This document shows positions 1,405-13,670 of a stretch of DNA of 64,000 bases, in pieces. The notes under the pieces were generated by a model, which had not been told where the DNA came from, ran no database searches, and saw only the letters and a list, made by a program, of their open reading frames with translations. Position 1 is the first letter of the stretch. Every line of letters starts with the position of its first letter. This stretch comes from Candidatus Zixiibacteriota bacterium (GTDB lineage: Bacteria > Zixibacteria > MSB-5A5 > GN15 > FEB-12): the NCBI GenBank assembly GCA_017999435.1, contig JAGNLV010000003.1, positions 310,001-374,000 on the forward strand, written 5' to 3'. The position numbers were made by a program, and so were the translations under genes.

Positions 1405-2656
1405 CCTTCTCCCTCCCCATCTTCTTCTTGTTCGGCTTAACGTAGAGATCGAAGAGGAACACATGCACCGCCACGAACCGCCCTGGATCATCTGCCAATT
1501 TGAATCGAAGCCGCCATTCGCCGGGCTGTTTTGTCCCCAAGTCAGAAACGAAATTCGGATGCTTCATGAGTAGTTCGGGCAGGTTCTTCTGTATCGTCGA
1601 GAACCCAGCGTAATGCTTATTGAACGCAATGAGTGCCGATCTGCAGTCCCGCCATGTATGGTATCCCAGCATCTGGTTGATAGCATCGCCCACCGTCTTC
1701 GGTCCGTACCAGACCTTACATTCACCCACAAACGCCTCCCGATTCTCAGCCGTGATCAATATATCGGTTTTCCCATTCCGGCGAAACGTCTCACCGGTGG
1801 CCTGCCCCTTGTAGACCGCATTGAGGCTCGCCAGCAGGAAGTCCCGAAGCTCCTCCTCATCAAGTTTGGAGGGGGCCGATGGCAGTGATTCGAGCGTTCG
1901 CCCCATATGGCGAAGGATTGACAGGATGTCCTCATAGGCCTCATCGGTGAGTCCGCGTTCCTCCTGGCCCTTGGGGCTGTTCGAGAGAGGCACGACGGGC
2001 TTTCGTCTCACCTCCAATGGATGGAAGGTGGGAGCCCCCTCCTTGCGCTCCAGCGGTATGTCAATTGTTTTTGCCACAGTCGAATACAGTGCCAGCTTCT
2101 TGCGTCGCGCCGTTATCGCGCGGCGAACATCCCTCTGCAAAACCTCGTTGTGACGCTCGATTTGACCCCGCACCTGATCAACATGATATTCGATGTTGTC
2201 GATTACTGACTTGATTTCACCGGCGAGGTCCCTCTCTGCCCTGTCGTCAGGCACTTCGACTATGATCACCAGTGCACCTGCTCCACTCGGAAAGCCGTCT
2301 GTCTGAACTTGAGCTCGGGGAATCACTGACCGGTGGGTGTTCGGGAGATAGTACCATAACTGGAAATCGCCTGTGAATGGCAGGGTCACGCGTGCGCGGA
2401 CTCCGCTGACCGACGAGCCATCCCAGCCACTGATTCGCCCGTCATCGATATCCCAAGTGAACAGCTGCCGGTGCAGGCATAAAGGTTCGTGCTGCAGCTT
2501 GGACATAACATGAGCCAAAACCACATCGTCCATGCTGCAAGAAAACTGCTCGCGCGGAATCTTCTGCACGTGGTCCACGGCTTCTTGTCGATTCTTGTCA
2601 AGGATGGTGGCAAGAGGCCCCCGGTTAAACAGCGTTTCCATCAAAGGTTCTATCAC
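1394..2656 (-). CDS. PD-(D/E)XK nuclease-like protein inside the hsd operon
   Basis: 420 aa, no confident family name. Residues about 150-200 are charged and helical. The C-terminal half has the pattern GKTDILITAENREAFVGECK, which fits a PD-(D/E)XK core (D, then ExK on the next strand), so a nuclease fold is likely. It overlaps the hsdS end by 4 bases and the hsdR start by 11 bases, so it is translationally coupled to both and probably works with the restriction complex. Alternatives: a separate restriction enzyme for modified DNA, or an accessory subunit. The nuclease assignment is inference from the motif; the operon placement is seen directly. Confidence 0.7.
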   Translation of the reverse strand: MIEPLMETLFNRGPLATILDKNRQEAVDHVQKIPREQFSCSMDDVVLAHVMSKLQHEPLCLHRQLFTWDIDDGRISGWDGSSVSGVRARVTLPFTGDFQLWYYLPNTHRSVIPRAQVQTDGFPSGAGALVIIVEVPDDRAERDLAGEIKSVIDNIEYHVDQVRGQIERHNEVLQRDVRRAITARRKKLALYSTVAKTIDIPLERKEGAPTFHPLEVRRKPVVPLSNSPKGQEERGLTDEAYEDILSILRHMGRTLESLPSAPSKLDEEELRDFLLASLNAVYKGQATGETFRRNGKTDILITAENREAFVGECKVWYGPKTVGDAINQMLGYHTWRDCRSALIAFNKHYAGFSTIQKNLPELLMKHPNFVSDLGTKQPGEWRLRFKLADDPGRFVAVHVFLFDLYVKPNKKKMGREKDES

Positions 2657-3852
2657 TTATGCTGCCCTGCCTTTCCTCCAACTCGCACCCTGCCCGTCAG
2701 TAGCACCTGCATCAGGCCGCGCTTCTGCTCCTGCAAGCGACCTTTCAGTTCGATCATCGAGGCAATGGACTTATCTACCGAGAGGAGAGCGTCACCTACC
2801 TTTCGCTGCTCCTGAACTGAAGGCAGTTCGGCCCTGATGTGCGCGAAACTGTTGTATTTAAGGTTCAGTGTATCGTCGACCAAACCTTGCGAGAACCGCC
2901 GAAAACGATGAACCATCGGCGGAAACTTGAAGAAGTATGCGGCAAACAAGGCATCAACATCAGGCCCTGGTGTTACTACGGTGTACGCAGGGCTGACAAT
3001 TCCCTCCAGTTCCGACAAAGCTGAAACACCCTGCCACATGCGCATGGTGTTGTAACCGATGTCGCCTCGGGCGATTCGCTTGTACGCGCTCTTGTCATCT
3101 GTCGATGTGTCCTTCCGGTCAACCTCATCTCTCGGGATGATGCCCCGGTCCGAGGTTACGGAGAGCAAGGGAAGGTCCTGTCTGTTCGATTCAGACCTCT
3201 CTGAAAAGACCTCACCAAGCTTCACTTTCCTCCACGTGCACGCCTCGTACCCCGGAAACCGCCGCCTCCCGGTCAGCAGTTGCTGCATCAGACCTTTCTT
3301 GAGCCGGGTCTTGGCGCCAATCAACTTCGACACCTGCTCAATCGCCAAGTCCCATCGCGCGAGAATGCTAACTATCTGTTGTTGCTCGGTCGGAGGTGGA
3401 ACCAAGATTGGCAGGTTTCTCAGATAATCGCTTTGCAGCCTCCCAGTTCCGTGACCCGAGTGGTCTACAAAACCACGCAACACGTGTTTCCGGAAGGCCA
3501 AGAAGTAGGCCAGGTAGTCGTTGCTAACCCCGGTTCTGCCACTTATCGCTTTGAGGTCCTGATTGAATGTTGACGAGCAGGGGGTCAATCCAACCGGGAC
3601 GTCCTTGTGTAAGGTCATGCCACGCACGAGGATTAGAATCGTATTTCCGGGCACTTTCCGCGCGCCTGACCGGCTCCCCAGTTCGGTGAGGTGGTGGAGC
3701 GAATCCCTCAGTCTGAACCACTTCAAGTCTTTCGCCGTGTACCACGGAATGCTCCCCCCCCAGAAATCTGCCTTCCCTTTGCCTGGTGTCCCGCCCGAGA
3801 TGATCGTCGCGATTTCACCTAGTTCCAGCTGCTTCCACCCCTTAGGCACCAT
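2653..3852 (-). CDS. hsdS: Type I restriction-modification specificity subunit (full length, two target-recognition domains)
   Basis: 399 aa, a normal length for HsdS. The N-terminal half begins WKQLELGEIATIISGGTP, a typical first recognition domain. Two similar conserved helical regions are present: KKGLMQQLLTGRRRF mid-protein and KRGLMQVLLTGRVRV near the C-terminus, the spacers expected between two recognition domains. HsdS sets the DNA sequence recognised by the HsdM/HsdR complex. Its ATG at 3852 lies in a duplicated copy of the hsdM-end sequence that supplies a Shine-Dalgarno AAGGAG seven bases upstream. It follows the CBASS cassette by 128 bases and overlaps the downstream nuclease-like gene by 4 bases. 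Confidence 0.93.
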   Translation of the reverse strand: MVPKGWKQLELGEIATIISGGTPGKGKADFWGGSIPWYTAKDLKWFRLRDSLHHLTELGSRSGARKVPGNTILILVRGMTLHKDVPVGLTPCSSTFNQDLKAISGRTGVSNDYLAYFLAFRKHVLRGFVDHSGHGTGRLQSDYLRNLPILVPPPTEQQQIVSILARWDLAIEQVSKLIGAKTRLKKGLMQQLLTGRRRFPGYEACTWRKVKLGEVFSERSESNRQDLPLLSVTSDRGIIPRDEVDRKDTSTDDKSAYKRIARGDIGYNTMRMWQGVSALSELEGIVSPAYTVVTPGPDVDALFAAYFFKFPPMVHRFRRFSQGLVDDTLNLKYNSFAHIRAELPSVQEQRKVGDALLSVDKSIASMIELKGRLQEQKRGLMQVLLTGRVRVGGKAGQHK

Positions 3853-3883
3853 ACCCCAACTCCTTCAGATACTCCCGCATCAC
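3849..3883 (-). pseudogene. Duplicated 3' end of hsdM (about 11 codons) in front of hsdS
   Basis: Bases 3849-3872 are identical to 6804-6827 at the true hsdM end, and similarity continues for about 8 more bases (6 of 8). Read leftward it encodes MREYLKELGYG followed shortly by a stop, matching the HsdM C-terminus MRAYLKELGYG. It contains AAGGAG, seven spacer bases and the hsdS ATG. Bases 3884-3980 upstream show no further match to hsdM and no other recognisable gene. This is the far flank of the CBASS cassette. Confidence 0.85.
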
Positions 3884-3980
3884 TGCAGGTGCGTGCCATC
3901 CTATCTCGCTCCTGCCCGACTGATCAACTGCATGGGATGACTTCGCGGGACGGGACGTATTGTTCCACGTGGATAGGTGG

Positions 3981-4730
3981 TCAGATCTCATGGTGTTTCT
4001 CTTTCAAGTACTTTGTGACTCTCTTGCTGATAGACTCAGGCGGTATCTGTATGCCAGAGCCAGCTATCATGTTTCCGGCATCAAGGTATTCAAGGAGGAA
4101 TCCATCCGGTGATTGAAGAGCCTGGAGCTCCCGGAGCTTGTGACCATGACAGTTTCGCAATCTATGGCCGCTTCCACAGGGACACGGTTGGTGTCCCCGG
4201 TAATCGTCGTCTGCCAGTATGCGCAGCAACCCTAACACGATCAAGTCATCCTCCGTGGAAAACTCGCTTCGGTAGAAATCCAGGATTCCGCGAAGGCCAT
4301 GCGACCATTCACCGAACGGCATTTCTCCCCGTTGCTCGACATACGAGTAAGCATACAGATATGGGACAACGGCTTCTTCGACGAATCTCAACAGTGTCAG
4401 ATTGGCTGCAAACCTCCGGCGAAGATCGAGCGGGACTCCGAGGCAGAGCGACCCATCATCATACTTGTGGTGATCTTCTGATATTCGGCCCCCTGTTTCA
4501 AAAACAGATGGGATTCGGCGCGGATAGTCAGAAGGCACTCGCAGGAGAACGTCATACGCGTCCTTGATTTCGATGCCGCCATGTTCCGCCGAAAAGGCTA
4601 AGCGACCGACGATCTGGACAGATCCGTCTTCGGCTACCTTTAGCCGAAGTTCGGGAAACTGGGCATGCAGTCCCGCAAATTGACCGATCACCAGTTGGAC
4701 CAATTCTTCTTGTATCAGCGTGGCGACCAT
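3981..4730 (-). CDS. CBASS E2-like (ubiquitin-conjugating fold) protein with C-terminal SEC-C zinc motif
   Basis: 249 aa. The core has an E2 signature: a YPRRIPSVFE strand (residues 69-78), then HHKYDDGSLCLG with the predicted catalytic Cys at residue 96. In type II-short CBASS operons a lone E2-like protein acts on the neighbouring CD-NTase, without a separate E1 or deubiquitinase gene. None is present here. A SEC-C-like metal site follows near residues 183-195 (CPCGSG...CH). It overlaps the CD-NTase end by 16 bases, and no clear ribosome site precedes its ATG, so coupling is likely. Family role is established knowledge; the function of the zinc motif is unknown to me. Confidence 0.82.
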   Translation of the reverse strand: MVATLIQEELVQLVIGQFAGLHAQFPELRLKVAEDGSVQIVGRLAFSAEHGGIEIKDAYDVLLRVPSDYPRRIPSVFETGGRISEDHHKYDDGSLCLGVPLDLRRRFAANLTLLRFVEEAVVPYLYAYSYVEQRGEMPFGEWSHGLRGILDFYRSEFSTEDDLIVLGLLRILADDDYRGHQPCPCGSGHRLRNCHGHKLRELQALQSPDGFLLEYLDAGNMIAGSGIQIPPESISKRVTKYLKEKHHEI

Positions 4731-5851
4731 GGTTTACTCGGATGAGAGATGCGAAATTGTGGTACTGCCGGTTGGTTGTAGCTCTCCATTACCTTATTGG
4801 CGACACTGGCTCCGAAGGCTTTCTGCAGAACCTTCTCGTTTTCGGTTCTGTTCGGCATACCGAGAGCGGTCAAATCGGCTTTTATCCATTGGATCCACTG
4901 GAAGAAAGCCCTGGCACCCAAGTTATCGGCCTCATGCCACTTGTCAGCGAAGTTCTCAGCGGGATTGATCGGATTAGGGATGTACCATCGGCCGCCAGCG
5001 TCCCTCGTCAGTATTCTCTCTCCCGCAAACCGCTCCCGCACCTGACCGTGCGCAAGCAATGGTGTGTAAGCGGCCAAAGCGTCCACGATGTTTGTGAGTG
5101 CAGAATGGACATCCGGCTCACCCAGATATGCGAGGGCGGCCAGTGTCGTGATAATCATGGAAATCGGTTTCGCTTCTTCCCACTGGTGTCCGCCGAACCT
5201 GATGTCTCGGTGTCGCTTGAGAAGCTGGATCGCCTTCTGGAGGGGCGTCTTGACGGAGAACTCGGGGACCTGATCTATATGGACGCCCCTTGCTGCTGCC
5301 AGTGCTTTCCTCTGGCTTTCGAACTGAGGCCTCATTCGGTTCATGAACCAGACTGCATATCCCTTTGGATTACTGCACTTCCAACATGATAGACGCTTGT
5401 CGGGTATGAGAATGGCGTCGGAACCCATTTGACCATCGGGGGTGGCGGGTAAAATATCCAAGTGGAATGCCCCGGCGTACTTGATTTGCCAGCAGCGGTT
5501 CTTCTCCACGAGTATGTCTCGGTACCGTTCGTTCTCTCGAAGCCGGTCGCCCACGAGTCTCTTCAGCTGTGCCGGTTTGGTATTCTGCGAGTTGACCTCT
5601 AAACGACACACTAAGTCGATGTCGTACTCCGGATCATCCCCGATCGGTCTCACAATCGTGCCCAAGCGGAAGGATCCATGAGAATAGATATTGGGCTTAA
5701 GAACGGCTATGGAGGAGCCATCTCGCCCCAGCCAGTCCCCTATAGCTTCGTAGTGTCCAACCGCTTTGTTGAAGTCAGTTTCCGAAATATCAAGCTCAGC
5801 GGCCATCTGGCTGAGAACTTCATTCATCGGGATGTTATCATTTGTGCTCAT
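4715..5851 (-). CDS. CBASS CD-NTase (cGAS/DncV-like cyclic-oligonucleotide synthase)
   Basis: 378 aa. The nucleotidyltransferase core is clear: HGSFRLGT (G59-S60), then YDIDL with catalytic acids D77 and D79, then a third acid in FHLDILP (D132). The enzyme makes a cyclic nucleotide second messenger after phage infection, which activates the effector encoded just upstream (CapV). Start ATG at 5851 has AGGAG seven bases upstream and overlaps the capV stop by 4 bases. The C-terminus ends in ...PWSPR rather than a glycine. The exact messenger cannot be read from the sequence. Confidence 0.92.
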   Translation of the reverse strand: MSTNDNIPMNEVLSQMAAELDISETDFNKAVGHYEAIGDWLGRDGSSIAVLKPNIYSHGSFRLGTIVRPIGDDPEYDIDLVCRLEVNSQNTKPAQLKRLVGDRLRENERYRDILVEKNRCWQIKYAGAFHLDILPATPDGQMGSDAILIPDKRLSCWKCSNPKGYAVWFMNRMRPQFESQRKALAAARGVHIDQVPEFSVKTPLQKAIQLLKRHRDIRFGGHQWEEAKPISMIITTLAALAYLGEPDVHSALTNIVDALAAYTPLLAHGQVRERFAGERILTRDAGGRWYIPNPINPAENFADKWHEADNLGARAFFQWIQWIKADLTALGMPNRTENEKVLQKAFGASVANKVMESYNQPAVPQFRISHPSKPWSPR

Positions 5852-6807
5852 TTAACCTCTCCTGAAACAGGTGTTATCGTGTGGCACGGCACAAAAGGGG
5901 ATGCCATGTGTGCCGAAAACATTCGCTTGAACTCCGGCGTTAGGTGACGACTTGTGTGGGCAGCGTTCGACAATAGGCCTTCAGCCGTTAGTTTGTCCAG
6001 AGCAAACAGTTCGTCGTGAACGAGTGGATCACATCTCAGGTACCTGTCCTTGTCGAGTAGAAGCGAAGCTTGACCGTGGGCACCCACACTTTGCCCCCGC
6101 AAGATTACGTCGACGGCAGCTTTTCGCCACTGCCAAAAACCACCGTTACTTAGTGATTCTGGTTTCTTCTGGATCGGGGAAGTTGTACTGAGACTAAAAG
6201 CGCGTAACGACTCAACAGGCTGCTGCAAGATACCTATTGCCTCGACAATACCAACAACAACTGGGTTGTTCGCCCAAACACCGCCGTCGATCAAGCGGAT
6301 GGAATCGACCTCTCGACAGACGCCAAAGTATGTAGGTGCCGAACTCGTTGCGAGGGCTATTTTCCACATCGGGACCTTATAGTCCCGCTGAAAGCGCGTG
6401 TGGTGCGCGGTCTTAAAAATGTAAACTTCGTCGGCATCGAGGTTGTATGAGGGTATAGCGAGCCGTTTCTGACTATCGGCCAATCGCCTTTCTCCGAAAC
6501 AGGCCTTCAGCGCGGAGGCCAATGGTTCGGAGCCGTATTTTCGCGTGAACAAACGCCCTGAGGTGCGAAAACTCTGCGGAAAAATCTTCGGCCCTTCTTG
6601 AACGTAGAACTCGACGATCTCTCGGGGGCTCATGCCGATTCCAAGGCTGAGAGCTATTATCCCGCCTGTCGATGTCCCCACAACCAGATCGAAGTGGTTC
6701 ACTATCGTCGTTCCAAGATCGTCCTCAATGGCGGCCAAAACTGCCGCCGAGAAGATCCCTTTGATACCACCGCCATCCAGAGAGAGTATCTGAAACCTAC
6801 CCCCCAT
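5848..6807 (-). CDS. capV: CBASS effector, patatin-like phospholipase CapV
   Basis: 319 aa patatin-fold phospholipase. It has the oxyanion motif DGGGIKG (residues 11-17), the nucleophile elbow GTSTGG with Ser46, and the dyad Asp in LIDGGVWANNP (Asp174). CapV enzymes are activated by the CD-NTase product and degrade the inner membrane, killing infected cells. The ATG at 6807 overlaps the end of hsdM by 11 bases. Its Shine-Dalgarno AAGGAG lies within the hsdM tail, the same signal that precedes hsdS. All catalytic residues are intact. Confidence 0.93.
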   Translation of the reverse strand: MGGRFQILSLDGGGIKGIFSAAVLAAIEDDLGTTIVNHFDLVVGTSTGGIIALSLGIGMSPREIVEFYVQEGPKIFPQSFRTSGRLFTRKYGSEPLASALKACFGERRLADSQKRLAIPSYNLDADEVYIFKTAHHTRFQRDYKVPMWKIALATSSAPTYFGVCREVDSIRLIDGGVWANNPVVVGIVEAIGILQQPVESLRAFSLSTTSPIQKKPESLSNGGFWQWRKAAVDVILRGQSVGAHGQASLLLDKDRYLRCDPLVHDELFALDKLTAEGLLSNAAHTSRHLTPEFKRMFSAHMASPFVPCHTITPVSGEVK

Positions 6808-8299
6808 ACCCCAACTCCTTCAGATACGCCCTCATTTGCGCCCGCGTCTCGGCCAACTGGCGCTCCAGCTCGTCTATCTCTTTCTGCACCGCCTCGATAT
6901 CGATCTCCTCCTCCTCCTCGAACGTGTCCACGTACCGGGGAATATTCAGGTTGTACTCCGCCTCCCGGATCTCCTCGATGGTCGCCCGGTACGCGTACTT
7001 TTCGACGGTCTCGTACCTCCGGTAGGATGCCACGATCTTTTCGATATCCTGATCCCGCAGCTTGTTCTGTCGCTTGCCGTCCTCGTATTCGCGGCTGGCA
7101 TCGATGAACAGCACATCGGTCTTCTCCCCCCGCCCCTTGTCGAACACGAGGATCGCCGCCGGTATCCCGGTGCCGAAAAACAACTGCGCCGGCAGCCCGA
7201 TCACCGCATCGAGCAGGTTTTCCTCGATCAGCTTTTGCCGGATGCGCCCTTCCGCCCCGCCGCGGAACAGCACCCCGTGCGGGACGATCACGCCAATGCG
7301 CCCTCTGCCCTCGACCGCCGACTCGATCATGTGGCTGATGAAGGCGTAATCCCCTTTGCTTTTCGGCGGGATTCCCCGGTGGAACCGGTTGTAGATATCC
7401 ACCCGGGCTTCGTCGTACCCCCACTTGTCCAGCGAAAACGGCGGATTGGCCACCACGATATCGAATTTCATCAGCCGGTCTTCCTCGACCAGTTTCGGCG
7501 CGGTCAGCGAGTTGCACCACTCGATCCGGGCGCTGTCTTTGTTATGCAGGAACATGTTCATGCGGCAGAGCGCCCAGGTCGAACCGTTGTTCTCCTGCCC
7601 GAACAGCGCATAGTTGTCGTTCCCGATCTCGTTGGCCACCCGGATCAACAGCGACCCCGACCCGCACGCCGGGTCGAGTATCAGCGCCCCCGGTTTCGGG
7701 TTGACGAGCTTCGCGAGGAGGCGCGACACCTGCCGGGGGGTGTAGAACTCGCCTGCTTTCTTGCCTGCTCCGGCGGCGAATTTCTCGATCAGGTATTCGT
7801 ACACGTCGCCGATCACATCGTGGTCGCTGATCACACTTGGGCGCAGGTCAAGCCGGCTGTCGTTGAAATCATCGAGCAGGTGCTTGAGCCGTCGGTTGCG
7901 CTCCTTGGCCTCCCCAAGGGCTGCCTCACTGTTGAAGCTGATGTTCCGGAAGACGTTTTCGAGCTTCGTCTTGTTGGCGTCTTCAATTGCCGCCAACGCC
8001 TTGTCAATCTCCTCGCCCACGTTGGCGGCGTTCCTTTTCTTGTACAGACTGTCGAAATCGCAGCCCTTCGGCAGGATGAAACGTTCTCGCGACAGGGCCC
8101 GCTCCACCCGGCCGGTGTCGCCCTTGTACTTCCGTTGGTATTCCTCCCGCTTGTCCTTCCACCAGTCGCTCACGTACTTGATGAAGAGCATTGTGAGGAT
8201 ATAGTTCTTGTACTCCGCTGGGTCGATAGCCCCGCGGAACGTATCGCATGCTTTCCAAACGATATCGTTGATTTCCTTCTGATTGACCTCTTTCGCCAT
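6797..8299 (-). CDS. hsdM: Type I restriction-modification DNA methyltransferase subunit
   Basis: 500 aa N6-adenine methyltransferase. An N-terminal helical HsdM domain (residues 1-150) is followed by EFYTPRQVSRLLAKL, the SAM-binding motif DPACGSG (residues 209-215) and the catalytic motif NPPF (285-288). It methylates the sequence chosen by HsdS and forms the core of the restriction complex. It starts 11 bases after the half-HsdS gene with a clear AGAGGA ribosome site. Its end now joins directly to capV; the ancestral join to hsdS is preserved as a duplicate at 3849-3883. Confidence 0.96.
   Translation of the reverse strand: MAKEVNQKEINDIVWKACDTFRGAIDPAEYKNYILTMLFIKYVSDWWKDKREEYQRKYKGDTGRVERALSRERFILPKGCDFDSLYKKRNAANVGEEIDKALAAIEDANKTKLENVFRNISFNSEAALGEAKERNRRLKHLLDDFNDSRLDLRPSVISDHDVIGDVYEYLIEKFAAGAGKKAGEFYTPRQVSRLLAKLVNPKPGALILDPACGSGSLLIRVANEIGNDNYALFGQENNGSTWALCRMNMFLHNKDSARIEWCNSLTAPKLVEEDRLMKFDIVVANPPFSLDKWGYDEARVDIYNRFHRGIPPKSKGDYAFISHMIESAVEGRGRIGVIVPHGVLFRGGAEGRIRQKLIEENLLDAVIGLPAQLFFGTGIPAAILVFDKGRGEKTDVLFIDASREYEDGKRQNKLRDQDIEKIVASYRRYETVEKYAYRATIEEIREAEYNLNIPRYVDTFEEEEEIDIEAVQKEIDELERQLAETRAQMRAYLKELGYGG
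6804..6835 (-). repeat. hsdM 3' end copy flanking the CBASS cassette (partner of 3849-3880)
   Basis: Direct repeat of the hsdM tail, with 24 identical bases then 6 of 8. It carries the AAGGAG Shine-Dalgarno and the ATG used here by capV. The two copies bracket capV, the CD-NTase and the E2 gene. Confidence 0.9.
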
Positions 8300-8310
8300 A
8301 GTTGTGTCCT

Positions 8311-8922
8311 CTATTTGGAGTGATTACGTGCCGCTTGAAGGGTGATCCGAGACACCAGCAGAGCCCGCCGTTCCGCCAACCGCTTCTCGATCTGCCGCTC
8401 GCACCTTCCGAGCCGGTCCAGTTCGGCAATAGCCTGCTGAACAGGCATCGGCGGCACATCGACCGGAAGGTCGACCAGCGCCGACTTTGGCACCACCGGC
8501 ATGTGGCTGCCCCGTCGTGCGAGGGATTCCATGAACACCTTCGCTGGAGGAGAATTGAGATACCAGGCGAGAAAGGAGGGCAGGACCTCGCCGGTGTTTG
8601 GGCGAATGATAAAAAAGTAGGCGACCGGGATCAGATTTCCCATATTCCTGCCCATGAAAACGGCCCAGTTGTCGTGCCCGCGTGACAGAAACAGGACATC
8701 TCCCGGCTGGAGCAGGAACGCGGAGGGATGCCGCGGCGGCTCAAAAGGGGTGAGCCTTTCGACCTGTAGATTCCGATCCTCATCGAAATCCTTGATCTGG
8801 ACGAGCCTGAACGGGCTCCCGTTGATCGGTTTGACCCTCCCCTTGGTAGGATATCCGAGCTGGATGTCTGCAATCTCGCCAAGTTTCCGCTTCACAATCG
8901 CCTCATCAATTGTATTTCGCAT
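8311..8922 (-). CDS. Half-length HsdS-like specificity protein
   Basis: 203 aa, about half an HsdS, with one recognition domain (KRKLGEIADIQLGYPTKGRV... through VVPKSALVDLPVDVPPMPVQQAI) and one C-terminal helical arm (AELDRLGRCERQIEKRLAERRALL). It is the first gene of the leftward hsd/CBASS operon, before hsdM. Half-S proteins can dimerise to replace a full HsdS or swap with it. No Shine-Dalgarno is visible at the ATG, which sits inside an operator-like dyad (8912-8924). Whether it acts as an alternative specificity subunit or as a methylation-only partner is not known from sequence. Confidence 0.8.
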   Translation of the reverse strand: MRNTIDEAIVKRKLGEIADIQLGYPTKGRVKPINGSPFRLVQIKDFDEDRNLQVERLTPFEPPRHPSAFLLQPGDVLFLSRGHDNWAVFMGRNMGNLIPVAYFFIIRPNTGEVLPSFLAWYLNSPPAKVFMESLARRGSHMPVVPKSALVDLPVDVPPMPVQQAIAELDRLGRCERQIEKRLAERRALLVSRITLQAARNHSK

Positions 8923-9141: not shown

Positions 9142-9164
9142 TAGGATAAGGAGGTGACACACCG

Positions 9165-9953
9165 GTGGGCAATGTCCGTCTGGGTATTCTGCCCCAGACC
9201 CATAGGTGGCGGGAGGTAGTCAAGCTGCTGGAGGGCGAGGGCTCTCTGACTGAGATCGCCAAGGCCAGCTTCGAGGCCGCCCTTGTCAGTTTCCGGCACA
9301 TCCCCAACGATCCCGGATTCACCGAGGCTCTCACCGAGATATTCAAGTTTGCCGAATCGGCCAAGACGGTTGACTTCGTTGACAGGTTGCAGGTGGTGGG
9401 GTTTGAGGTCGGTTCGGATGCCTCCGCACTTGAGCTCCTGGCCAGCCTCCGGTCACGCATCGACAATTCTTTCCGCCGGTTCTCGAATCGTACCGACCTC
9501 CAGGAAATCGCCGTCAACAGTTTCGGCGAGTCACTCATGCGCCAGACTGCGGCCGAGCTGCCGTCGCTGCTCGCCGCCCCTCCCCGGACAGCCCAGGAAG
9601 TAGTCCGGCGTCAACTGACCGGATCGCGCTTCAAGGGCCTCATGCACGAGTTCTACTCGGTGTTCACCCGCCGCTACCTCGCGTACTACCTCAGCCGCGA
9701 GCTGGCCCGCCACGTCGGCGGCCCCGGCTCCCGCTTTCGGAGCATAGATGAGCATACGGCTTTCAATCGGGCGTTTGACACCTGGGTTCGGCAATCGGTC
9801 CGCATTGCAGACGAATTCACCCCCGGCTGGTTTGCCAAGACCAGTTATCAGGAAGGGATTACCCGCCAAAACGTCTCCCGCTACGCCCATGTAGCTTTCA
9901 AGAAAATCTCCGGCGAACTCCAGCGAGGCAACGGCCATGGGCACGGGGGATAG
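9165..9953 (+). CDS. QatB-like partner of a QueC-family protein (unknown function)
   Basis: 262 aa starting with GTG, chosen because a full-strength Shine-Dalgarno AAGGAGGTGA ends 7 bases upstream. The protein begins Met-Gly. I recognise no enzyme motif. It is mostly helical, with a conserved-looking Arg/Tyr-rich segment (FYSVFTRRYLAYYLSRELARHVG, about residues 164-186). It overlaps the QueC-like gene by 17 bases, so the two products probably act together. In Qat anti-phage systems an uncharacterised QatB precedes QueC-like QatC, which is the basis for the name. No QatA ATPase or QatD nuclease is in the window. Confidence 0.6.
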   Translation: MGNVRLGILPQTHRWREVVKLLEGEGSLTEIAKASFEAALVSFRHIPNDPGFTEALTEIFKFAESAKTVDFVDRLQVVGFEVGSDASALELLASLRSRIDNSFRRFSNRTDLQEIAVNSFGESLMRQTAAELPSLLAAPPRTAQEVVRRQLTGSRFKGLMHEFYSVFTRRYLAYYLSRELARHVGGPGSRFRSIDEHTAFNRAFDTWVRQSVRIADEFTPGWFAKTSYQEGITRQNVSRYAHVAFKKISGELQRGNGHGHGG

Positions 9954-11826
9954 AGCCTTTCTCTTCGAGTGCGGGGGCGAACGGGCCGGGGATCGAGACC
10001 CCGCGGATTACCTCAACGTCATTCCACTGGACTGGCATCCGGAAACCGGCAACGTCAATTTCAGGCTCGATAACATCAGTGAGCCCATAGGCCGCGATAT
10101 CCCGGATATTTGTCTCGATATGCTTGAGATCGGCGCCTATGTCTACAGCGCGGATCAGGCGGTATCCAGAGGCGGTCCCAAGCAACGCCGCCATGGCAGC
10201 GACTGGTACCGCAATTTTGAGCTCCATATCCCGGTGAGACGTCTTGACATTTGGACCAGGCCGGCGGTGCAGAAGGCGCTCAGCGAGACACTCAACTTCC
10301 TGTCGGACGACCGCTGGGACTTCAAATTCGCGCAACTGACCAGAGAAATCCCGATCAACCTGCTGATTGACTTCAACCGGGACGGGCCGTGGTTTCCACC
10401 GGATGAGGTCATGCTGTTCTCGGGCGGCCTCGACTCGCTCGCCGGCGCGGTTGACGGACTCGTCAACCACGGCAGGAAACTGGCGTTGGTGAGTCATCGC
10501 TCGGTCGCTCCTGTCGACAGTCGCCAGCGGGAAATTGTCAGGAGACTGCAAGCGCTGGGCGGTCGCGGAGGTCAGGCGGTGCACATTCCGGTATGGGTGA
10601 ACCGGCGCGGGGCAACCGGAAGCGACACCACACAACGCGCCAGGTCGTTTCTGTACGCCATGCTGGCGGCCGCCGTGGCCATCATGCACGATATGGACCG
10701 CATTTGCTTTTACGAGAACGGGATAACGAGCATCAATCTCGCTCCGGTGGAACAGGTGGTGGGCGCCAGAGCCAGCCGCACGACTCATCCGAGAACGCTT
10801 CACGGCTACGCCCGGCTCCTGACCGCCGTCACCGGCCGGCCTTTCGAGGTCGACAATCCGTACTTCTGGAAAACGAAGTCGGATATAGTGCGAGTGATCA
10901 AGGAGGCCGGCCAGTCTGAGTTGGTGGGTCTATCCAAGAGTTGCACCCACACCCACGGCACCACGAAAGAGCACCCCCACTGCGGCGTCTGTTCCCAGTG
11001 TGTGGACCGGAGAATCTCCACGGCGCATAACGAGTTGGAGACGTACGACCCCGGGCATAAGTATGTGACGGATATCTTCAATGGTCCTCTCCCCAAGAAG
11101 ACGAAACCGACGGAGCGGACAATGGTCGAATCGCTCATCCGTCACAACCGCGAACTGGAGCAGATGGACGAGGTTCAGTTCTGGACGCATCACGAGCGGC
11201 TCTCATCGGTTTTGCCGTACGTTGACGGGAAAGGGGTCGAAAAGCCACTCAGGATATTCGAATTGCTGCACCGCCACGCTCGGCAGGTCGGGGAGGTCAT
11301 CAACGCCCAGATCAGAGCCCGTGCGGACGCCATCCGGCTGGGGCAGATCGACCCAGACTCGCTTCTGGGCATCCTGACCGAAGGAGCGTGCCGCAAGCCT
11401 ACTGCAGAACTGCCATTCCGACCGTTTCCGACGCCCGAGGGGGCCGGCTGGGAGGAGATCACGATCGAGATCACTTCCCGGGAAACGCTCCGAGTCACGT
11501 GCCGCGGGATAACGAAATCTTACAGCGCCTACGAGCTCGGGTTTGTCGATCGCCGCAAGACCGACCGGTTCACCAACCAGTGGCGGCTTCTTGAGGCTTT
11601 TGCGGCGCAGGGCGGCCAGATTTACTGGGAGAGCAACAAGTCCAGTGAGGGGCTCCAGAAGGCTGTTCAGGCGCTGAAGGCGAGGCTCTGCCGGATATTT
11701 GGCCTGAAGGACCCGCCGATTGCCAATTACACGAGGGTCTCCGGCTACGTAACCAAGTTCACGATCCGGGACGTCTCCTTCCGTGGTGGCTCACATTCCG
11801 AAATTTCGGAATCTTCACGCCCGTAA
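9937..11826 (+). CDS. QueC-like ATP-dependent enzyme with C-terminal extension (QatC-like, defence-associated)
   Basis: 629 aa. A central PP-loop pyrophosphatase motif, SGGLDS (residues 162-167), and a four-cysteine zinc cluster (Cys336, 349, 352, 355) match QueC, the 7-cyano-7-deazaguanine synthase fold. QueC itself is about 220-240 aa. Here about 150 residues precede the PP-loop and about 270 follow the zinc site, ending in a winged-helix-like segment (residues 545-600). No queC/D/E/F genes sit nearby, and the setting is a defence island, so a Qat/type IV CBASS-like immune role is more likely than queuosine synthesis. It starts within the preceding gene and is clearly coupled to it. Confidence 0.8.
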   Translation: MGTGDRAFLFECGGERAGDRDPADYLNVIPLDWHPETGNVNFRLDNISEPIGRDIPDICLDMLEIGAYVYSADQAVSRGGPKQRRHGSDWYRNFELHIPVRRLDIWTRPAVQKALSETLNFLSDDRWDFKFAQLTREIPINLLIDFNRDGPWFPPDEVMLFSGGLDSLAGAVDGLVNHGRKLALVSHRSVAPVDSRQREIVRRLQALGGRGGQAVHIPVWVNRRGATGSDTTQRARSFLYAMLAAAVAIMHDMDRICFYENGITSINLAPVEQVVGARASRTTHPRTLHGYARLLTAVTGRPFEVDNPYFWKTKSDIVRVIKEAGQSELVGLSKSCTHTHGTTKEHPHCGVCSQCVDRRISTAHNELETYDPGHKYVTDIFNGPLPKKTKPTERTMVESLIRHNRELEQMDEVQFWTHHERLSSVLPYVDGKGVEKPLRIFELLHRHARQVGEVINAQIRARADAIRLGQIDPDSLLGILTEGACRKPTAELPFRPFPTPEGAGWEEITIEITSRETLRVTCRGITKSYSAYELGFVDRRKTDRFTNQWRLLEAFAAQGGQIYWESNKSSEGLQKAVQALKARLCRIFGLKDPPIANYTRVSGYVTKFTIRDVSFRGGSHSEISESSRP

Positions 11827-12049: not shown

Positions 12050-12559
12050 ATGAAAAGGCGACGAAACCATCCAACCCGGCTCCTGAAACTCCGCAGGAGC
12101 TACACCATGCGCGAACTGGCCCGCGTGCTGGGCGTCCATGTCCGCACCGTTCAGGTGTGGCATCGAGACGGCATGTCCCCGATCAATCCAGGCGACCGAC
12201 CCTTGCTCTTCCTGGGCGAGGAAGTCAGGCGGTTTGCCGCCGACCGACGCAAAAGGAGGAGCTGCCCCCTCCGGCCCTCTGAGTTCTACTGCCCCAGATG
12301 CCGGGCGGCGAGGGAATCGAACCTCCGGGACCTCCGCATTGAATGGGATGGCCGCCGGATGGGACGCGACGATGAGTTCGCTTTGATCAAGGGAAAGTGC
12401 CCCATTTGCGACTGCCTCCTCACGCGGTTTGCCACCCGGAAGAAGCTCTTGGGCTCGGTTTGGGAGGCGATACTCGCGCTGCGTAATGGACGTTTATGGG
12501 GTGCTGCCGGTAACTGCGTGGAGACTGACTTGAGCAGGGAGGGGTATCATGCAAACTAA
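12050..12559 (+). CDS. Helix-turn-helix / zinc-ribbon protein of a recombinase module
   Basis: 169 aa from the ATG at 12050, chosen because the upstream open frame (from 11783) overlaps the previous gene and shows no protein-like pattern. Residues 19-41 form a MerR/excisionase-like HTH (YTMRELARVLGVHVRTVQVWHRDG). A zinc ribbon follows with CxxC pairs at Cys81/84 and Cys117/120. It overlaps the downstream recombinase by 11 bases, which suggests a DNA-binding accessory or regulator of recombination. Bases 11827-12049 before it hold no gene that I can support. Confidence 0.75.
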   Translation: MKRRRNHPTRLLKLRRSYTMRELARVLGVHVRTVQVWHRDGMSPINPGDRPLLFLGEEVRRFAADRRKRRSCPLRPSEFYCPRCRAARESNLRDLRIEWDGRRMGRDDEFALIKGKCPICDCLLTRFATRKKLLGSVWEAILALRNGRLWGAAGNCVETDLSREGYHAN

Positions 12560-13670
12560 CGTGGCCAACGCCAAGATCAAACGGCGGTATTTCGAGCGGC
12601 TGGACGAAGCGGATGGGCTGGCGGAATCGACCATCGACGCCTACAACCAAGCCATCTGCCGCTACGAAGAATACTCGGGCCGGGAGGACTTCCGCAAGTT
12701 CAACCGCGCCCGCGCGGTGGGGTTCAAGCGATGGCTGGAGGAAGGAACGGGTGGTCGGGCGCTCTCTCCCGGAACGGTCTACCATACCCTGCGATATCTC
12801 AGGGCGTTCTTTACCTGGCTGTCCGGGCAGGCGGGCTACAAATCGAGGATCAGCCTCGACGACGTCGCATACCTTGCCCTCGACAAGAAGGCGGTACAAA
12901 AAGTGGTCGCGTCCCGGCCGGTCCGGTGCCCGACGCTGGAATACGTGCTCCAGCTCACCGGCTCCATCAGTCCTCAGACCGACATCGACCGGCGGGATCA
13001 GGCCCTGATTGCCTTCCTTCTGGTCAGCGCCATGCGAGATCAGGCGGTTGCGACACTGCCCCTTGGGTGTCTGAATGTCGATAGCCTGGTGGTTAGTCAA
13101 GACCCGAACGCCGGGGTTCAGACGAAGTTCAGCAAGACGATTGTCACCACCCTGATGGCTTTTGACGACCGGTTGATCGGGTACGTGCGGGACTGGGCAA
13201 GGTACTTGATTACGGTCAAGCTCTTCGGCCCTGCCGATCCGCTCTTCCCACGGAGCAAGATCGAACAGGCCGACGGGCTCTGCTTCTCAGCGATCGGTGT
13301 CGAGCCGGTGTTCTGGAAAGGCACCGGTCCGATCCGAGAAATCCTCAAGAGGCGGGCCGCCGAAGCCGGGCTCGAATACTACCATCCGCACTCGTTCCGG
13401 CATGCTGCCTTCCACATCGCCATGCGCCATTGCCGGACGGCCGAGCAGCTTCGCGCCATTAGCCAGAACTTCGGCCACGAGCATATCGCCACGACCTTGA
13501 CGAGCTACGGGCGCCTGGAAGCCGTGGAGGTAGATGGAATCATCAGAACAATGGACTTTCATCCCGGCGATGCATCCGGTTCCGGCGAAGTCAACACGGA
13601 GATGGCTAAGGAGATTCTGGCTGTAGTGGAAAAGCACCGCCGGCGGCAAGGGGGTAGCTACAATGAATAA
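12549..13670 (+). CDS. Tyrosine recombinase/integrase
   Basis: 373 aa. It has an N-terminal SAM-like core-binding domain (residues 20-95) and a C-terminal catalytic domain with Arg163 (SAMRDQ), His281-x-x-Arg284 (HSFRH), His310 (FGHEH) and the nucleophile Tyr320 (TSYGRL). It cuts and rejoins DNA at specific sites. It overlaps the genes on both sides (HTH/zinc-ribbon and excisionase-like), forming a three-gene module. It is unlike the integrase at 15426-16511, so the island carries two independent recombination systems. Confidence 0.92.
   Translation: MQTNVANAKIKRRYFERLDEADGLAESTIDAYNQAICRYEEYSGREDFRKFNRARAVGFKRWLEEGTGGRALSPGTVYHTLRYLRAFFTWLSGQAGYKSRISLDDVAYLALDKKAVQKVVASRPVRCPTLEYVLQLTGSISPQTDIDRRDQALIAFLLVSAMRDQAVATLPLGCLNVDSLVVSQDPNAGVQTKFSKTIVTTLMAFDDRLIGYVRDWARYLITVKLFGPADPLFPRSKIEQADGLCFSAIGVEPVFWKGTGPIREILKRRAAEAGLEYYHPHSFRHAAFHIAMRHCRTAEQLRAISQNFGHEHIATTLTSYGRLEAVEVDGIIRTMDFHPGDASGSGEVNTEMAKEILAVVEKHRRRQGGSYNE

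What the first reader, a model, noticed from the sequence alone, without database searches (positions are those of the whole stretch)
9165..11826. Two-gene QueC-like defence locus whose proteins both begin Met-Gly
A QueC-fold enzyme (PP-loop SGGLDS, four-cysteine zinc site) with large extra domains is coupled to an unknown partner, as in Qat systems, but without QatA or QatD nearby. Recent work, as I recall it, describes QueC-like immune proteins that attach a deazaguanine to N-terminal glycines of partner proteins. Here both proteins start Met-Gly, so after methionine removal either could be a substrate. This could be a minimal two-gene version.
Basis: partly seen in the sequence, partly recalled or inferred. 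Interest (0 to 1): 0.68.

Follow-up and report, generated by a model that had tools for sequence, protein, structure and literature searches.

The report
Two-gene Qat-like defence module
Two overlapping genes in a mobile bacterial defence island encode a remote relative of the phage-defence pair QatB and QatC, here without the usual helper genes and with a DNA-acting domain probably fused on instead; the conserved glycine at the start of the small protein is probably where the enzyme attaches a chemical group, and many host genomes seem unable to make the group that was expected.

Summary
P1 (9165-9953, 262 aa) and P2 (9937-11826, 629 aa) overlap by 17 bases. P2 is QatC-like over residues 6-479 (structure Z 32.4 to crystal QatC) with about 147 extra C-terminal residues. 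P1 matches no family profile, but its predicted fold matches crystal QatB (Z 12.2, 208 of 215 residues; next row 5.4) and profile comparison agrees. Homologous adjacent pairs occur in Zixibacteria, Proteobacteria, Leptospira and viral contigs; QatA and QatD were not detected beside them. Gly2 of P1 is invariant (19/19; MGHxRLxxLP[RK]TxxW). The Met-Gly of P2 occurs in this window only and comes from reading P1's His-Gly codons in the overlap. P2 relatives form a clade beside QatC whose C-terminal slot varies: fold unproven here, winged-helix-like or a DpnII/MboI-type nuclease in others. So this is a divergent two-gene QatBC-type module; P1 is the likely Gly2 substrate, P2 is not. That the attached group is a deazaguanine is doubtful: CDG-recognition residues are replaced, and 6 of 11 carrier genomes, this one included, have no detected QueE or canonical QueC. 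Defence function and modification are inferred.

The parts
9148..9154 (+). Shine-Dalgarno-like AAGGAGG ahead of P1
   Evidence: sequence read; 10 bases before the GTG start
9165..9953 (+). P1: QatB-like partner, 262 aa, all-helical with a flexible N-terminus
   Evidence: ORF; AlphaFold2 model pLDDT 80, 11 helices; best structural match QatB 9y01_A Z 12.2, 208 aligned; hhalign to QatB score 44.3 against at most 15.7 in 40 shuffles
9165..9209 (+). Conserved P1 N-terminus MGNVRLGILPQTHRW, proposed P2 substrate with Gly2 as acceptor
   Evidence: G2 19/19, H3 17/19 (Asn here), L6 18/19, P10 16/19, W15 18/19; residues 1-8 have pLDDT below 50
9937..9953 (+). 17-base overlap of P1 and P2; source of P2's Met-Gly
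   Evidence: P1 reads GGC CAT GGG CAC, P2 reads ATG GGC AC.; overlaps of 4-38 bases with the longest-ORF start in 12 relatives
9937..11826 (+). P2: QatC-like QueC-family enzyme with an extra C-terminal domain, 629 aa
   Evidence: PADLOC QatC 1e-51, NCBIfam QatC 5e-55 but below its cut-off, structure Z 32.4 to QatC over residues 6-479
9937..10395 (+). P2 QatC-type N-terminal extension (residues 1-153)
   Evidence: aligned with QatC from model residue 6 on; QueC and Cap9 align only from about residue 154
10396..11049 (+). P2 QueC core (residues 154-371)
   Evidence: matches B. subtilis QueC 3bl5 Z 12.6 and Cap9 9nto Z 12.5 over this range
10420..10437 (+). PP-loop SGGLDS (residues 162-167)
   Evidence: invariant in the P2 alignment A3
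10774..10788 (+). SRTTH (residues 280-284): substrate-pocket segment equivalent to QatC T278-H282
   Evidence: alignment; QatC T278 is Ser or Thr and T280 is Thr, Ser or Ala in this family
10942..11001 (+). Four-cysteine zinc site C336, C349, C352, C355
   Evidence: invariant in the P2 alignment and aligned with QatC cysteines
11050..11382 (+). P2 QatC-type C-terminal extension (residues 372-482)
   Evidence: structural match to QatC runs to model residue 479-482
11383..11823 (+). Extra C-terminal domain (residues 483-629), perhaps winged-helix-like; fold unproven
   Evidence: beyond the end of QatC; order of strands and helices in the model; no Pfam match and no profile link to the wHTH-like domains of relatives
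12050..13670 (+). Island context: HTH protein (ATG about 12050) and tyrosine integrase next to the module
   Evidence: same pair follows the module in L041, L043, L044, L045 (integrase 47-52% identity, HTH 34-43%)

Best explanation
The locus is a two-gene anti-phage module built on a divergent QatB/QatC pair. P1 (QatB-like) binds P2 (QatC-like) and its flexible tail, beginning with Gly2 once the first methionine is removed, enters P2's QueC-type active site. P2 uses ATP to activate a carboxylate and joins it to the amine of Gly2. QatA and QatD are absent; in their place P2 carries a C-terminal domain that probably acts on DNA (a domain of unproven fold here, winged-helix-like or a restriction-nuclease domain in relatives) and that gives the modified complex its output. 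Shown by computation: the QatC-like architecture, QatB fold of P1, invariant Gly2, linked inheritance of the pair, exchangeable C-terminal domain, placement in mobile defence islands. Inferred: complex formation, modification of Gly2, DNA as target, phage defence. Unknown: the group attached and the trigger.
For: P2 to QatC: profile 1e-51, phmmer to solved QatC 6e-29, structure Z 32.4, 411 of 428 residues. P1 to QatB: Z 12.2, 208 of 215 residues, rmsd 4.0, next unrelated row 5.4; hhalign E 1.2e-5, score 44.3 against at most 15.7 in 40 column shuffles and 20.8 reversed. Gly2 19/19 and a conserved Pro/Trp tail, as QatB has Gly2, Pro16 and Trp18 in a tail needed for defence (PMC13279940). P1 lies next to P2 in every relative with enough contig; their distance matrices agree, r 0.93, never reached in 2000 permutations. 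P2 clade is split from QatC with support 99/98. C-terminal slot: DpnII-MboI nuclease in two relatives (1e-9), winged-helix-like ends in others, and an independent QatC-TatD fusion (1e-46). Neighbours: CBASS and type I RM here; type I, IIG and III RM and Cas9 beside relatives; integrases and viral contigs.
Against: No experiment. P1 does not match the NCBIfam QatB profile. Z 12.2 for a helical protein is below the level (about 13) that is safe on its own. The fold of the window's own C-terminal domain is unproven: no profile match, so a DNA role is carried over from relatives. Matching trees and gene order would also arise from shared inheritance without a complex. Defence role rests on neighbours and homology.
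Confidence: 0.68

Rival explanations
1. P2 does the Cap9 reaction: it joins CDG (7-carboxy-7-deazaguanine) to Gly2 of P1, giving an N-terminal 7-deazaguanine.
For: QueC fold, PP-loop and zinc site kept; Gly2 invariant; Cap9 does this to CD-NTases (PMC11996544), and the same is proposed for QatB (PMC13279940, PMC13329287). Five of 11 carrier genomes do have QueE and a QueC.
Against: The Tyr/Asp pair that holds CDG is replaced by Ser/Thr and Thr/Ser/Ala. QueE and canonical QueC are both undetected in six of 11 carriers, among them genomes 98, 97 and 93% complete, and carriage does not follow QueE (5/11 carriers, 7/21 non-carriers). CDG was absent from the QatBC crystal made with CDG and ATP, and activity was not reconstituted (PMC13279940).
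Confidence: 0.3
2. P2 is an ordinary or accessory preQ0 synthase for queuosine, and P1 is unrelated.
For: Pfam QueC match above cut-off; this genome has no other canonical QueC.
Against: N- and C-terminal extensions as in QatC; QueC-specific pocket residues absent; no QueE found in this genome; QatC itself does not complement a queC mutant (PMC13329287); conserved pairing with P1.
Confidence: 0.03
3. The pair is a regulatory or toxin-antitoxin type unit of the mobile element, not a defence system; the C-terminal domain controls the island's genes.
For: Winged-helix-like ends in several relatives; an HTH protein and an integrase follow in the Zixibacteria islands.
Against: Nuclease domain in the same slot in two relatives; close kinship to the proven defence pair QatBC; neighbours are restriction, CBASS and Cas9 genes.
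Confidence: 0.15
4. P1 and QatB only share a general helical-bundle shape; P1 is an unrelated partner protein.
For: 11% identity; no hit to the QatB profile; helical folds often score well by chance.
Against: The two QatB entries are the only rows above Z 5.4 among the 1000 aligned chains and are covered almost fully; profile comparison is well above shuffles; same gene order and a similar Gly2/Pro/Trp tail.
Confidence: 0.08

Closest known systems
qatABCD (QatB and QatC), Gao 2020; structures in PMC13279940
   Same: QatB-fold partner upstream of a QatC-like enzyme, overlapping genes, Gly2 and Pro/Trp tail, QueC core with the same N- and C-terminal extensions, PP-loop, zinc site, non-CDG pocket. 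Published QatBC alone defends against lambda.
   Different: No QatA, no QatD; tail motif MGH with Trp at residue 15 and very short, instead of MGTS with a 30-90 residue tail; P1 undetected by the QatB profile; P2 below the QatC cut-off; extra C-terminal domain; QatC T278/T280 positions vary (Ser/Thr and Thr/Ser/Ala).
Cap9 of type IV CBASS
   Same: QueC-family enzyme paired with a partner that exposes an N-terminal glycine.
   Different: Cap9 is about 185 aa, keeps the Tyr/Asp CDG site, and its partner is a CD-NTase; here the partner has the QatB fold, and the nearby CD-NTase (4715-5851) begins MSTND and belongs to an E2/patatin CBASS on the other strand.
QatC-TatD fusion of Bradyrhizobium ottawaense pBoOM27 (L086:3259-5388)
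   Same: QatC-like enzyme with an extra DNA-acting domain fused at its C-terminus.
   Different: Fused domain is TatD; partner is annotated as QatB; a P-loop NTPase gene is still present upstream.
Canonical QueC
   Same: Core fold, PP-loop, four-cysteine zinc site.
   Different: No pocket residues for CDG, large extensions, conserved protein partner, no queDE neighbours.

Membership tests
qatABCD system | QatA (KAP-type NTPase) present | tested here: not met
   no QatA relative in window or 304 kb of flanks; no KAP NTPase in the genome
qatABCD system | QatD (TatD nuclease) present in the operon | tested here: not met
   phmmer with two QatD queries, none in window or flanks
qatABCD system | Partner matches the QatB profile NF041924 | tested here: not met
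   no QatB hit at E up to 1 for P1 and four relatives; both control QatBs hit
qatABCD system | Partner has the QatB fold | tested here: met
   Z 12.2, 208/215 residues, well above the next row; supported by hhalign; near the limit for helical proteins
qatABCD system | Partner N-terminus MGTS | tested here: not met
   Gly2 invariant but motif is MGH/MGN
qatABCD system | QatC architecture: N-extension, QueC core, C-extension | tested here: met
   Z 32.4, 411 of 428 residues of 9y01_B
qatABCD system | QatC equivalog cut-off (NF041925, 280 bits) | tested here: not met
   187 bits for the window, 188-201 for relatives
qatABCD system | QatC invariant threonines T278 and T280 | tested here: not met
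   Ser or Thr at 278, Thr, Ser or Ala at 280
qatABCD system | Protects against phage; needs Gly2 and the PP-loop | not testable with these tools
   needs plaque assays
Cap9 / type IV CBASS | CDG-recognition Tyr and Asp | tested here: not met
   replaced in every relative (residue roles from PMC13279940)
Cap9 / type IV CBASS | CD-NTase partner with N-terminal glycine | tested here: not met
   partner has QatB fold; nearby CD-NTase begins MSTND
Canonical QueC | queD/queE neighbours and QueC pocket motifs | tested here: not met
Protein N-terminal deazaguanylation | 7-deazaguanine adduct on Gly2 | not testable with these tools
   needs intact-mass analysis

The most novel reading that the evidence does not exclude
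QatC-type enzymes of this clade attach something other than a 7-deazaguanine to the N-terminal glycine of a QatB-like partner, so the modification works in cells that cannot make CDG; and the enzyme's C-terminus is an exchangeable DNA-acting output module that replaces QatA and QatD. N-terminal glycine conjugation would then be a general platform with different partners, attached groups and outputs.
Probability: 0.4. Interest if true: 0.8.

Novelty: new variant of a known kind. Interest (0 to 1): 0.6.

Why it matters
The chemistry of QatC is an open question: its activity has not been reconstituted and its pocket lacks the CDG-binding residues. This clade offers a natural test, because many carriers seem to lack the CDG pathway altogether. 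It also gives a QatB-type protein with a very short tail and a QatC-type enzyme with its probable output domain fused on (nuclease, winged-helix-like; TatD in a separate fusion), which may make the link between modification and effect easier to assay than in the four-gene system.

Tried and rejected
Both proteins as substrates: rejected, P2's Met-Gly occurs in 1 of 14 relatives and arises from the overlap. G000:C7 QueC hit as the host's canonical QueC: rejected after reading it; it sits beside a poly-Gly TIR gene. C4 hit as QueC: read as an NAD-synthase-like protein. Triple PTPS protein as QueD: unconvincing, it lies near a phenylalanine-hydroxylase-like gene and no QueE. Sequence search of P1 against PDB and Pfam: only chance hits. 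Foldseek alone did not show QatB in its top 50; the VIA realignment found it. Linking the window's C-terminal domain to the winged-helix-like ends of relatives by hhalign failed (prob 0.3, no better than shuffles), and Trans_reg_C matches are below cut-off (0.058-0.16). P1 in plasmids by tblastn: none, although a distant pair on a Leptospira plasmid was reached through P2. Literature searches found no description of a two-gene, QatA/D-less form, but only open-access papers are held.

Full report
What is there. P1 (9165-9953, + strand, 262 aa, GTG start) and P2 (9937-11826, 629 aa) overlap by 17 bases. P1 has no other in-frame start between the preceding stop and the alignable start, and AAGGAGG lies 10 bases upstream, so its second residue is securely glycine. 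P2 carries SGGLDS and four zinc-site cysteines, all conserved in the aligned relatives.

P2. It matches QatC profiles (PADLOC 1e-51; NCBIfam 187 bits, below the 280-bit cut-off) and the sequences of solved QatC (6e-29 and 8e-23). The AlphaFold2 model (mean pLDDT 80) fits crystal QatC 9y01_B/9y02_B at Z 32.4 over 411 residues, model residues 6-479, that is the whole of QatC with both extensions; QueC and Cap9 fit only the core at Z 12.5-12.6. Residues 483-629 lie beyond QatC.

P1. No Pfam, PADLOC or NCBIfam family, including the QatB profile, which both control QatBs hit. The model is all-helical with a disordered start (pLDDT 80, residues 1-8 below 50). Among 1000 chains realigned, the two QatB crystal structures rank first (Z 12.2 and 12.1, 208 and 199 residues aligned, rmsd 4.0 and 4.3), and the next row is 5.4. 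This is slightly below the level that is safe for a helical protein alone, but profile-profile comparison with twelve QatB rows gives prob 81, E 1.2e-5, score 44.3, against at most 15.7 in 40 column shuffles and 20.8 for the reversed profile. I therefore treat P1 as a QatB homologue, with moderate to high confidence.

Distribution. P1 relatives were found in ten genomes of the window's class (this one included) and one more distant genome (G154) among 194 searched, in genome contigs named as Zixibacteria, Pseudorhodoplanes, Armatimonadetes, Chromatiales and Betaproteobacteria, on a Leptospira noguchii plasmid and in viral contigs. The QatC-like gene follows directly in every case where the contig is long enough, though some copies are broken or frameshifted in the assemblies (G054, L048, L050, L051). 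P1 and P2 core distances correlate at 0.93, with no permutation of 2000 as high; shared inheritance explains this as well as contact would. No QatA or QatD relative lies in the window or in 304 kb of flanks.

The glycine. Gly2 of P1 is invariant in 19 of 19 sequences; His3 in 17, Leu6 in 18, Pro10 in 16, Trp15 in 18. QatB has Gly2 in MGTS, with Pro16 and Trp18; Gly2 and the stretch 16-22 are needed for defence (PMC13279940). P2's Met-Gly occurs in 1 of 14 relatives and is the shifted reading of P1's CAT GGG CAC codons. So only P1 is a candidate substrate.

What is attached. In Cap9 and QueC a Tyr and an Asp hold CDG; QatC has two threonines there, T278 and T280, and its activity could not be reconstituted (PMC13279940). 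In this clade the first position is Ser or Thr and the second Thr, Ser or Ala. QueE, which makes CDG, was not found in this genome although the search rings in 10 of 14 control genomes. Among 11 carriers, strong QueE hits occur in five (G015, G017, G034, G061, G154) and not in six (G000, G040, G054, G062, G063, G099; completeness 98, 78, 97, 93, 89, 88%); among 21 non-carriers seven have one. A canonical-type QueC is found in the same five carriers and not in the six. So carriage is not tied to CDG supply. Two cautions: draft genomes can miss genes, and this genome also encodes a Cap9-like QueC fragment at a contig edge, whose presence would suggest some CDG source.

The C-terminal slot. A tree of the QatC-like cores separates this clade from QatC with 99/98 support; within it the C-terminal types form separate groups. 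Leptospira and G154 carry a DpnII-MboI nuclease domain (1e-9 and 5e-9, above cut-off). Proteobacterial and viral-contig members end in winged-helix-like segments (such as NVHGRGYRINP), with Trans_reg_C below cut-off (0.058-0.16); this is a reading of sequence, not a proven match. L097 has yet another end. The window's own domain has the strand/helix order of a winged helix but no profile or sequence support. Independently, a Bradyrhizobium QatC is fused to TatD (1e-46). The slot after QatC is thus used for DNA-acting domains at least twice; extension to the window's domain is inference.

Context. The window has a CBASS set (CD-NTase, patatin, E2) lying between type I RM genes on the other strand. 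Relatives sit beside type I, IIG and III RM genes and Cas9. In the Zixibacteria the module is followed by the same HTH gene and tyrosine integrase (integrase 47-52% identity), which marks a cargo slot of a mobile island.

Mechanism and verdict. Best reading: a two-gene QatBC-type module in which P2 modifies Gly2 of P1 and a fused C-terminal domain supplies the output that QatA and QatD may supply elsewhere. It works like QatBC; it is not a qatABCD system, since QatA, QatD, the MGTS motif and both profile cut-offs were tested and not met. Published work already shows QatBC alone can defend (PMC13279940) and that only about a third of QatC-cluster genes lie beside qatA and qatD (PMC13329287), so the two-gene form is a new variant rather than a new kind. 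Defence, modification and the attached group remain untested.

Noticed in passing
L063:2-904 (G000:C7:2-904); L128:770-3932; L129:774-3929: In the window's own genome a Cap9-like QueC fragment at a contig edge is followed by a ThsB-like TIR protein beginning MGGGGGGGRG. On Rhizobium and Agrobacterium plasmids the full operon is TIR-TGT fusion, Ogg-HhH, Cap9-like QueC, and a TIR beginning MGGGSSGS or MGGGGGGDG: it resembles the type IV CBASS QueC/TGT set with a TIR in place of the CD-NTase, so the TIR may be an N-terminal deazaguanylation substrate.
   Followed up: partly
L097:1-3327: Viral contig on which a poly-Gly TIR (82% identical to that of the window's genome) is directly overlapped by a P1-family gene (MGHTRLGELPRTRKW) and a P2-family gene: the TIR/QueC system and the two-gene module side by side.
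   Followed up: partly
window 2653-8922 (- strand): A CBASS set (E2 3981-4730, CD-NTase 4715-5851, patatin 5848-6807) lies between HsdM/HsdS genes of a type I RM system.
   Followed up: no
L086:3259-5388: Bradyrhizobium ottawaense plasmid pBoOM27 encodes a 709-aa QatC fused to a TatD nuclease (PF01026, 1e-46), with no separate qatD annotated next to it.
   Followed up: partly
L039:6376-8187; L040:6449-7519: Two proteins without a QueC domain share P2's C-terminal domain (E 2e-15 and 2e-5). The first sits in the same cargo slot, between type I RM genes and the HTH/integrase pair.
   Followed up: partly
L057:4352-8089; L152:2779-6505: Another QatC-like context: a protein of about 188 aa, a QueC-like protein of about 460 aa (SNGLDS in the Sinorhizobium copy), an XRE-type regulator and a PIN protein, without a glycine at position 2 of the small protein.
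   Followed up: no
L030 / L025 (G054:C47:2009-2509): The P2 gene of G054 is cut short shortly after the PP-loop (188-aa frame), so one carrier has a broken copy.
   Followed up: no
L153 (G000:C1:599439-600641): A single open frame of about 447 codons with three tandem PTPS (QueD/6-pyruvoyl-tetrahydropterin synthase) matches, near a phenylalanine-hydroxylase-like gene.
   Followed up: no
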